Shown here: in pieces, positions 39,001 through 42,000 of the stretch
Position numbering within the stretch: the first letter of the stretch is position 1
Layout: every line of letters begins with the position of its first letter
Source of the DNA: Owenia fusiformis
Lineage: Eukaryota > Annelida > Polychaeta > Sabellida > Oweniidae
Assembly (NCBI GenBank): GCA_903813345.2
Contig: CAIIXF020000010.1
Location: forward strand, 27,428,425 to 27,492,424
DNA length: 64,000 nucleotides
Direction: 5' to 3'
Position numbers and translations under genes: made by a program
The notes under the pieces: generated by a model
Told to the model about the DNA's origin: nothing
Database searches by the model: none
The model's input: only the letters and a program-made list of their open reading frames with translations

Positions 39001-42000
39001 GGTGAATGGCTTAACAAAGATCACCATGAAAGCCAGAAAACCTTGTTTGTATGACTGTAACATACTATTTCCCTAAACTAACTAGAAAAACAGCAACTCC
39101 ACGGAGTAGCAAATCCCACTGCACAAAACATGTTTTGATTAACAGTGGCCATCTGAGGTGGGCCATCTTGAAAATGTCTTCTTGAACAGAGCTCCTTTGT
39201 CCCTGGGTATCAGTATATAAAATTTGAACCAAATCCATCCACTGATATTTGAGTTATTAAAGATTATGTTTTTTACAAAACATGGTGGCCATTTAGAAAT
39301 TCAACTGCCACGTTGAAAATCCCTTCTGGAGCACAGCTCCTATGTCTCTGGGTATAGCATACCAAAACCAAATCCATCCCTTGGTATTTGAGTTATCAAG
39401 AATTATAATTTTTCCGAAAAAATGACGACCATTTCAACATTCAGCAGGCATCTTGAAAATGTCTTCTTGAACAAGGTTTCTTTGTCCGTAGGCAAAAGCA
39501 TATAAAGTAACGTTTCAACCAAATTGGTCAACTAGTATTTGAGTTATCAAAGATTGTATTTTTTACGAAATGGCTGTCATTTTGAATTGAGTCCCCATTA
39601 GGCATAAACCTATAAAATTTAAAAATCCATCAAATCCATCAACCGGTATTTGAGTTGTTGCCTGGACAGACGGACAAACGGAAGGATGGACGGATTACCT
39701 ATATCCCCCTCAAACTTTGTTCGGTGGGATAACCATAAGTGCTTTATAAGCATATTATGTGATATCTCACTATGTAATGTACCACACCTCCCAAACATGG
39801 AAATGATTTGTTCCTATACAAAGCCATCAACTTATTCAAGTCACTTTTATCTCTACCAGATGAAATGTCATTGATTATTTTTGAACCAATCATATTTCAG
39901 CAAACAAGAACTACAAAATGCCATTCGTTTGTCTACTTTAGGCCCAAAATATTTTTCAGAAAAACTTTTTTCTCCATATTGTACTGTTGTACATGTACAT
40001 GTATGTAAAATCAAACTGCACTTATTTGTGTAGTACAACAAAAGTTCAATTCCAAAACACCTAGTTGATGTACCTTTGTAAAGGAGACAAAGCAAACAAT
40101 GAACAATTGAACATATGATATAACAATTGAAAGCTCATCTGATGATGTTACCTCATTTACTATATACTCTAAAAGTTCAAAAATTGCCATTGGTAGCGGT
40201 CCATCACCAGTTATAACTTCAAAACCTCCAGGACACCCTAGACAGTTTTCAGAAATATTGATTTAAAAATCACATATAAATATTTCCAAAATCATTTTAC
40301 AGTAGATTTATAAAAATTCAAGTTTCTAAAATAAGTGAATACATGTATATCTGCCCTTTAGTACTCTCTTCTACAGAATTTTTTAAGGAAAACAAATGAT
40401 CTCAATTCAGTTTCTATGTCTTAGCCAAGAAGAGGAGAAATACCCCATAATTCATAGTTGAACCTATCGCTATGTAACGATGAACCTTTAGAGATTCATT
40501 TTATATGGAGATGCGTTCATGGATGAATTCTGGGGTATTCCTCACTCTTTATGGAAGCCTGAAGTTAAGAGACTAAAGTATGATCTTAAGTTAGTACAAT
40601 TACTTGATTCTGATATTTTCTAGTATTTACCTGGTAAAGGCTTCCCTGACTGAGCGGCTTTTTTATGTTCCTGAATAGCATCTTCTCCAAATACAGCCGC
40701 AAGGTCTTTGGGGTCAGGAGGGGGGATGGGGAAACGGCCAATCGCTAGTTCAACCAATGAGAGACCCAAACTCCAGATATCTGATTGAACTGTATAGCTG
40801 GCTCCTTGTAATCTCTCTGGCTAAAAATACAGTTTACCAGTTAGTCAACACATAAATACACTTAATCTACCTCTTGGCTCCTAAGGACATAAAAGATCTT
40901 GTTCCTACGAATGAACTGGACATAGAGTCTATACTTAAAGACAAAAAAAGATCTTGTTCCTTTGAATGAATTGGCCAAAGAGTCTATACTTATGCCTGGG
41001 TCACATTTTCTCCGATCCATTGGTTGGGGCCCTGCCGATTGAGTGTTTTGCTCAATATTGTATTCAATTTTGAACAAAATACTCAATCGGCCAGGCGCCA
41101 AAAATCGGAGCAAATGTGACCAAGGCCTAACAGACATATAAGATCTTGTTCCTATGAATGAATTGGCCAAAGAGTCTTTACTTAAAGACAAAAAAGATCT
41201 TGTTCCTATGAATGAATTGGCCAAAGAGTCTATACTTATGCCTGGGTCACATTTTCTCCGATCCATTGGCCGGGGCCCTGCCGATTGAGTGCTTTGCTCA
41301 ATATTGTATTCAATTTTGAACAAAATACTCAATCGGCCAGGCGCCGTAGTAAAAATCGGAGCAAATGTGACCAAGGCCTAACAGAATATAAGATCTTGTT
41401 CCTATGAATGAATTGCCCATAGAGTCTTTACTTAAAGACAAAAAAGATCTTGTTCCTATGAATGAATTGGCCAAAGAGCCTATACTTACAGACATATAAG
41501 ATCTTGTTCCTATGAATGAATTGGCCAAAGAGCCTATACTTACAGACATATAAGATCTTGTTCCTACAAATGAATTGGCCATAGAGTCTATTAGTTGTCC
41601 ACTAACACCAAAGTCACAGATCTTGATTTCACCCCTTGAGTTGACAAGAATATTTGAAGGTTTCACATCTCTATGCATAATTTCATGGTTCTCCCTCAGG
41701 TAGATTAAACCTTTCAACACCTGTGCAAGAAAAAGCAGAATTGTGATCAAAAGTGATAATTTCTTTCAACTTCACATGTACATACACATGAAATAATTAT
41801 TCATGTTACGTTGATTCTAATCTTCCTCCCAACTTCCATTATTGCAATTATTGTAATTTATGATTCTTGGAAATATACATTACTGCATGACATTGAATGT
41901 ACTTACAGCAACTGTGACTTTTCCTAGAATTGGCTCAGGTATCCTTCCGGCTTTCTTTAATACCAAATCTAAAGACCCGCCATCCTGCAAGCAAACAACA

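What the first reader, a model, noticed from the sequence alone, without database searches (positions are those of the whole stretch)
40886..41594. MEK activation-loop segment amplified in frame across an exon-intron boundary
The exon end carrying Ser218 and Ser222 is unit one of a 54-bp (18-codon) array that runs into the intron. Because 54 is a multiple of three and the second unit keeps an intact GTAAGTATA donor, using that donor would add 18 residues (VSIG plus [14 protein letters not shown]) and duplicate the phospho-acceptor loop without a frameshift. Later units have lost the donor, so the array is decaying or only partly usable. Minisatellite growth from a kinase activation loop is not something I know to be described.
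Basis: partly seen in the sequence, partly recalled or inferred. Interest (0 to 1): 0.8.

Follow-up and report, generated by a model that had tools for sequence, protein, structure and literature searches.

The report
Repeated exon end beside MEK intron
In an unnamed animal, the end of a MEK kinase exon, with its splice signal, was copied several times into the next intron, leaving a second intact splice site that could lengthen the kinase's regulatory loop by 18 amino acids; most copies look like ordinary decaying repeats.

Summary
On the minus strand a MEK1/2 gene, the only one found in the assembly, has an exon (41720-41544) ending in the activation loop and a GTAAGTATA donor. Its last 48 bases plus 6 donor bases recur as seven further 54-bp units in the intron. 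Only the first of these keeps a GT(A/G)AG donor (41489); using it would insert [18 protein letters not shown] in frame.

Nothing in the sequence shows that the extra residues are selected. Keeping frame has a 1-in-3 prior, and openness follows from copying coding sequence. Unit 2 has 3 nonsynonymous and 1 synonymous change (opportunity 106:32) in a segment identical to human MEK1 at 16 of 16 residues.

Best reading: an exon-boundary minisatellite, a described kind, mostly inert, with one live duplicate donor of unknown use. Both donors share the same nine-base site and near-identical flanks, so leaky or even preferred use of the inner one is not excluded; RNA would settle it. By-product: a probable mutually exclusive exon pair in the same gene, apparently constrained.

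The parts
41544..41720 (-). MEK1/2 exon (59 codons, catalytic loop to activation loop), ending ...[22 protein letters not shown]
41538..41591 (-). unit 1: 48 exonic nt + GTAAGT (donor 1, GT at 41543-41542)
41484..41537 (-). unit 2: only intronic unit with intact GTAAGT (donor 2, GT at 41489-41488); encodes [16 protein letters not shown]
41430..41483 (-). unit 3, donor lost (TTAAGT)
41376..41429 (-). unit 4 (one base short near its end), donor interrupted by the hairpin element
41238..41385 (-). hairpin (MITE-like) element, copy a; the span is that of the probe used, which includes a few flanking bases and so overlaps unit 4
   Evidence: 40 other matches listed in the genome, a lower bound: 40 of 1118 candidates were scored; alignment
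41180..41233 (-). unit 5, donor lost (TTAAGT)
41126..41179 (-). unit 6, donor interrupted by the hairpin element (GTTAGG)
40992..41134 (-). hairpin element, copy b (matched span); shares 7 non-consensus changes with copy a, 5 of them in none of 18 other copies
40934..40987 (-). unit 7, donor lost, one extra T
40879..40932 (-). unit 8, last unit, donor lost (TTAGGA); keeps the exon-like Met and Val codons
40631..40820 (-). next MEK exon ([16 protein letters not shown]...KPLPG), in frame from either donor

Best explanation
This is an intronic minisatellite born by tandem duplication of the 3' end of a MEK1/2 exon together with its 5' splice site (48 exon nt + GTAAGT). Shown from sequence: the units; loss of the donor in six of seven intronic units (TTAAGT in three, a hairpin-element insertion in two, TTAGGA in the last); and two element copies whose shared changes point to one insertion followed by doubling of a 246-bp higher-order unit. 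Inferred: the exon's own donor (donor 1) makes the main, conserved MEK mRNA. Donor 2 is a live duplicate used at an unknown, probably minor level, giving an 18-residue loop extension that selection has not shaped. If neither donor were used, the reading frame would meet a stop at 41312-41310.
For: Array anatomy and unit alignment. Only two GT(A/G)AG sites in the intron, donors 1 and 2. The exon segment [16 protein letters not shown] is identical to the MEK1 chain shown at 16 of 16 residues and to the MEK2 chain at 15 of 16, so it is highly constrained. Unit 2 has 3 nonsynonymous and 1 synonymous change against it; units 3-8 have 3-8 and 1-2 (units 4 and 7 inflated by a one-base shift), against an opportunity of 106 nonsynonymous, 32 synonymous and 6 stop changes. 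In contrast, the duplicated downstream exon pair of the same gene differs at 11 of 54 nt with 2 of 18 residues changed. No second MEK1/2 appeared among 59 listed matches (150 of 185 candidates scored): the two MEK exons match at 92-100%, the next hit at 57%. Background: 0 of 58 other conserved-exon loci had a TRF array overlapping the coding match by 15 nt or more; self-BLAST found 1 of 58, a decayed copy of an acceptor plus exon start beside a myosin exon (L077), a smaller event of the same general kind.
Against: Donors 1 and 2 share the same 9-mer (TCT|GTAAGT) and near-identical flanks, so local sequence gives no reason for donor 1 to win. The intron-proximal 5' splice site is preferred in some competing pairs, for instance DOK7 (PMC5585400, passages), and as a general rule for equal strong sites (recalled). 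So donor 2 use could be high. The nonsynonymous:synonymous count of unit 2 rests on four changes and the units share ancestry, so weak selection is not excluded. No RNA was available.
Confidence: 0.62

Rival explanations
1. Donor 2 is used in a sizeable fraction of transcripts, so this animal makes a MEK with a loop 18 residues longer, carrying two copies of the phospho-acceptor segment, as tolerated splicing noise without selected function.
For: Identical donor 9-mers 54 nt apart with near-identical flanks; both splices keep frame to the next exon; preference for the intron-proximal site is documented in DOK7 (passages).
Against: Unit 2 would lie in an otherwise near-invariant segment, yet differs at 3 of 16 residues; a long insert next to the P+1 loop would be expected to disturb an essential kinase with no second copy found (inference).
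Confidence: 0.25
2. Donor 2 makes a selected, regulated alternative isoform: a loop-extended MEK with altered activation.
For: Unit 2 is the only intronic unit with donor, frame and both serines intact; the gene has another alternative exon pair, so it is probably alternatively spliced anyway.
Against: Neutral-like change in unit 2; 3n length and openness need no selection; units 2 and 3 differ at 2 of 48 nt, so unit 2 may be intact merely because it is young.
Confidence: 0.07
3. Assembly artefact or private allele: the array length, or unit 2, is collapsed or mis-assembled, or specific to the sequenced individual.
For: Minisatellites vary in length (general knowledge); one assembly only; no reads seen.
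Against: Intronic units differ from each other by 1-10 of 48 nt, and the two element copies by 3 changes and 5 gapped bases, which argues against a simple duplication artefact; about 700 bp is within long-read reach (inference).
Confidence: 0.06

Closest known systems
Internal tandem repeats (minisatellites) at exon-intron boundaries in human segmental-duplication genes (PMC2812944; abstract and passages)
   Same: Minisatellite units (on average 30 bp repeated 4 times there) that overlap an exon-intron boundary and can change what is spliced; most of the coding cases in its Table 2 are in frame (32 of 40)
   Different: Here a highly constrained kinase gene with no second copy found; an exon 3' end with its authentic donor is the unit; no transcript evidence; a hairpin element is built into the array
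[quoted passage not shown] review PMC3443670, passages)
   Same: Tandem duplication of exonic or boundary sequence carries splice signals along and offers new splice choices
   Different: No new intron is seen here; the copied signal is a donor only, so the alternative is exon extension
Competing 5' splice sites (DOK7 intron 4, PMC5585400, passages)
   Same: Two nearby donors sharing one acceptor
   Different: 11 nt apart and frame-shifting in DOK7; 54 nt apart, identical over nine bases and in frame here; usage unmeasured

Membership tests
MEK1/2 (MAP2K1/2) gene | Kinase sequence closest to MEK1/2 rather than other MKKs | tested here: met
   the best 40 of the 60 PDB sequences shown are MEK1, MEK2 or dSOR1 (2.1e-58 to 3.2e-49); MKK7, MKK4 and MKK6 follow from 3.7e-29
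MEK1/2 (MAP2K1/2) gene | Activation-loop serines in SMANS context | tested here: met
   [16 protein letters not shown] in the exon; the Ser218/Ser222 numbering is recalled
Exon-boundary minisatellite | Tandem units including exon and adjoining intron sequence | tested here: met
   8 units of 48 exon-like nt + 6 donor-position nt
Exon-boundary minisatellite | Length variation between individuals or paralogs | not testable with these tools
   one assembly, one locus
Alternative 5' splice-site exon extension | Second intact in-frame donor | tested here: met
   GTAAGTATA at 41489; the 231-nt extended exon translates in frame into the next exon
Alternative 5' splice-site exon extension | Transcripts using it | not testable with these tools
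   no RNA data
Intron gain by tandem duplication (AGGT model) | The duplicated segment carries AGGT, supplying a new donor and a new acceptor | tested here: not met
   the unit boundary reads TCT|GTAAGT, not AGGT; acceptor-like sites were looked at by eye only, without a scoring scan
PIF/Harbinger-like MITE (the hairpin element) | Short, dispersed, terminal inverted repeats, 3-bp TWA target duplication | tested here: inconclusive
   about 150 bp, self-complementary (both strands match at the same places) and 40 other matches listed; flanks of many of the 20 copies viewed fit TTA/TAA by eye; no transposase link tested; the class features are recalled

The most novel reading that the evidence does not exclude
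A MEK gene with no second copy makes, through a duplicated donor, a regulated isoform whose activation loop carries a second set of phospho-acceptor serines: a natural loop-extended MEK generated by a minisatellite.
Probability: 0.07. Interest if true: 0.75.

Novelty: new member of a known kind. Interest (0 to 1): 0.3.

Why it matters
If donor 2 is used, it would be a natural test of how far a MEK activation loop can be lengthened, and of how identical tandem donors compete. If not, it is a clean record of an exon end turning into an intronic minisatellite, with donor loss by point change and by element insertion caught at successive stages, and a caution that in-frame units alone are no evidence of function.

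Tried and rejected
Rejected: a paralog or second MEK as source of the array (none among the 59 listed matches). Rejected: the array as a dispersed satellite; the 111-bp probe's 5 matches are all at this locus, whereas the interspersed element does recur. Rejected: intron gain of the AGGT kind (no AGGT at the unit boundary). The T-rich TTTTTTGTCTTTAAG of units 3, 5 and 7 resembles an acceptor by eye; in units 3 and 5 the next codon in phase would be TAA, so it would not give an open frame. No acceptor scoring was run.

Led nowhere: RNA folding of the exon-intron stretch gave strong structure (z -9.54 on 20 shuffles), with long hairpins at the two elements; I did not take it to a comparison of the two donors. 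The GFP-family search meant to help name the organism returned nothing and rang in none of 14 controls, so it says nothing. Two paper searches aimed at the organism's name did not identify it: one search found no paper, and one search tested a guess from memory (Owenia fusiformis) and listed nothing on it. The structure of the extended protein was not predicted: a spliced chain is not a direct translation of window DNA, so none was submitted.

Literature: the listings (titles, starts of abstracts) of searches in the open library show no report of a MEK activation-loop minisatellite or loop-duplicated MEK isoform; most subscription papers are not held. The abalone kinase intron minisatellite (PMC6905558, passages) has a 27-bp unit; the passages do not say that it derives from an exon.

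Corrections: an earlier count gave the alternative exons one base off at their starts (right: 40237 and 37733). In one search the script listed 11 shared non-consensus positions of the two elements; 4 lie in flanking sequence and were dropped, leaving 7.

Full report
What is there. The exon at 41720-41544 encodes the catalytic and activation loops and ends ...[16 protein letters not shown] followed by GTAAGTATA. PDB comparison places it with MEK1, MEK2 and dSOR1 (40 of the 60 sequences shown), far ahead of MKK7, MKK4 and MKK6. A search of the assembly (498 Mb, 525 contigs) lists no second MEK1/2 among 59 matches: the two MEK exons score 92% and 100% identity and the next hit 57% (150 of 185 candidates scored).

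The array. The last 48 exon nucleotides plus GTAAGT form unit 1. Seven more units follow in the intron. Their first 48 bases differ from the exon at 4-10 positions, counted without gaps, so units 4 and 7 (a one-base shift each) are overcounted. Only unit 2 keeps GTAAGT. Units 3, 5 and 7 read TTAAGT (unit 7 shifted by one T), units 4 and 6 are interrupted by an inserted element, and unit 8 reads TTAGGA. A scan of the 723-nt intron for GT(A/G)AG finds only donors 1 (41543) and 2 (41489). Donor 2 would give a 231-nt exon and insert [18 protein letters not shown] before PERLQ, in frame. If neither donor were used, the frame would stop at 41312-41310.

Two hairpin elements of about 150 bp lie in the array. 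The same element gives 40 other full-length matches, two of them next to each other; this is a lower bound, as 40 of 1118 candidates were scored. Of the 20 copies held, 18 lie outside the array. The two array copies share 7 departures from the consensus of these 18: 5 occur in none of the 18, one in 1 and one in 4. They differ from each other by 3 substitutions and 5 gapped bases. So one insertion was most likely doubled later with its neighbouring units, which explains the 246-bp higher-order period. The flanks suggest that it landed in the TAA of a unit's GTAAGT, with a TTA/TAA target duplication that has since changed at one base (read by eye). Calling it PIF/Harbinger-like is a recalled resemblance, not a test.

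Order of events (inference). Unit 8, at the far end, still has the exon-like Met and Val codons, whereas 5 of the 6 units between have Leu and 5 of the 6 have Ile. Units 2 and 3 share a Gly codon in place of the Asp, seen at that position in no other unit, and differ at 2 of 48 nt. This fits an old first duplication, spread of an altered unit, donor loss in some units, insertion of the element, higher-order doubling, and a recent origin of unit 2.

Does it matter to the protein? Three arguments keep the claim modest. First, a duplicated coding piece whose length is a multiple of three is open and in frame almost by default, so the frame is a 1-in-3 coincidence. Second, unit 2 has 3 nonsynonymous and 1 synonymous change against the exon, close to the 106:32 opportunity, although the segment matches the MEK1 chain at 16 of 16 residues and the MEK2 chain at 15 of 16. 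Third, the same gene shows what constraint looks like: its two alternative exons at 40237-40152 and 37733-37645 differ at 11 of 54 nt in their shared end, yet at only 2 of 18 residues. Against this stands one strong point: donors 1 and 2 share the same nine-base site and nearly the same surroundings, six of nine matches to consensus each. Four of the other six donors read from this gene score six, one seven and one eight, so both are ordinary working-grade sites. The inner of two competing donors is favoured in DOK7 (PMC5585400, passages); the general rule is recalled. Donor 2 may therefore be used; only RNA can tell.

Background. Among 58 other conserved-exon loci from the same assembly (kinase and myosin exons, some overlapping), TRF found no array overlapping the coding match by 15 nt or more (0 of 58). 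Self-BLAST found one partial boundary duplication (1 of 58): beside a myosin exon in L077, a decayed copy of the acceptor and exon start lies 99 bp upstream. Boundary duplications thus occur elsewhere in this genome; a multi-unit array like this one was not seen in this small sample.

Comparison with the known. Tandem repeats at exon-intron boundaries that change splicing were catalogued in human genes (PMC2812944: 27 intron modifications after manual inspection; abstract and passages). Tandem duplication across a boundary produced a new intron in a potato gene, and its authors cite fission-yeast genes with several tandem copies of a 24-bp exonic segment spanned by an intron (PMC4974935, abstract and introduction). 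The present case is a further example, notable for its gene. The listings of eight searches of the open library show no MEK case; most subscription literature is not held.

Limits. At least twelve contigs with matches beyond 25 Mb, and 498 Mb in all, suggest a chromosome-scale animal assembly, but the species was not established.

Noticed in passing
window 40237-40152 and 37733-37645 (-): Two alternative MEK exons, probably mutually exclusive: both join in frame to the preceding exon, have AG/GT borders, and end in DGP(L/R)PMAIFELL(E/D)YIVNE; 11 of 54 nt differ but only 2 of 18 residues. This is a better candidate for functional alternative splicing of MEK than the array.
   Followed up: partly
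window 43801-45131: A 162-bp x 8.2 minisatellite (95% matches), by position inside another intron of the same MEK gene.
   Followed up: no
G000 C9:37986009-37994334: Twelve matches to myosin-head model positions ~18-84 within 8.3 kb, which looks like a large cluster of alternative myosin exons.
   Followed up: no
L077 1415-1560: Decayed partial duplicate of a myosin exon start with its acceptor, 99 bp upstream of the exon.
   Followed up: partly
window 15395-16624 (-): Reverse-transcriptase open frame of 409 codons, stop to stop (Pfam RVT_1, 2.8e-18), a non-LTR-like element by resemblance only.
   Followed up: no
window 1529-1588 and 4729-4835: The same 15-bp repeat unit in opposite orientation 3 kb apart (CCCAGTTGTCCGAAA and its reverse complement).
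   Followed up: no
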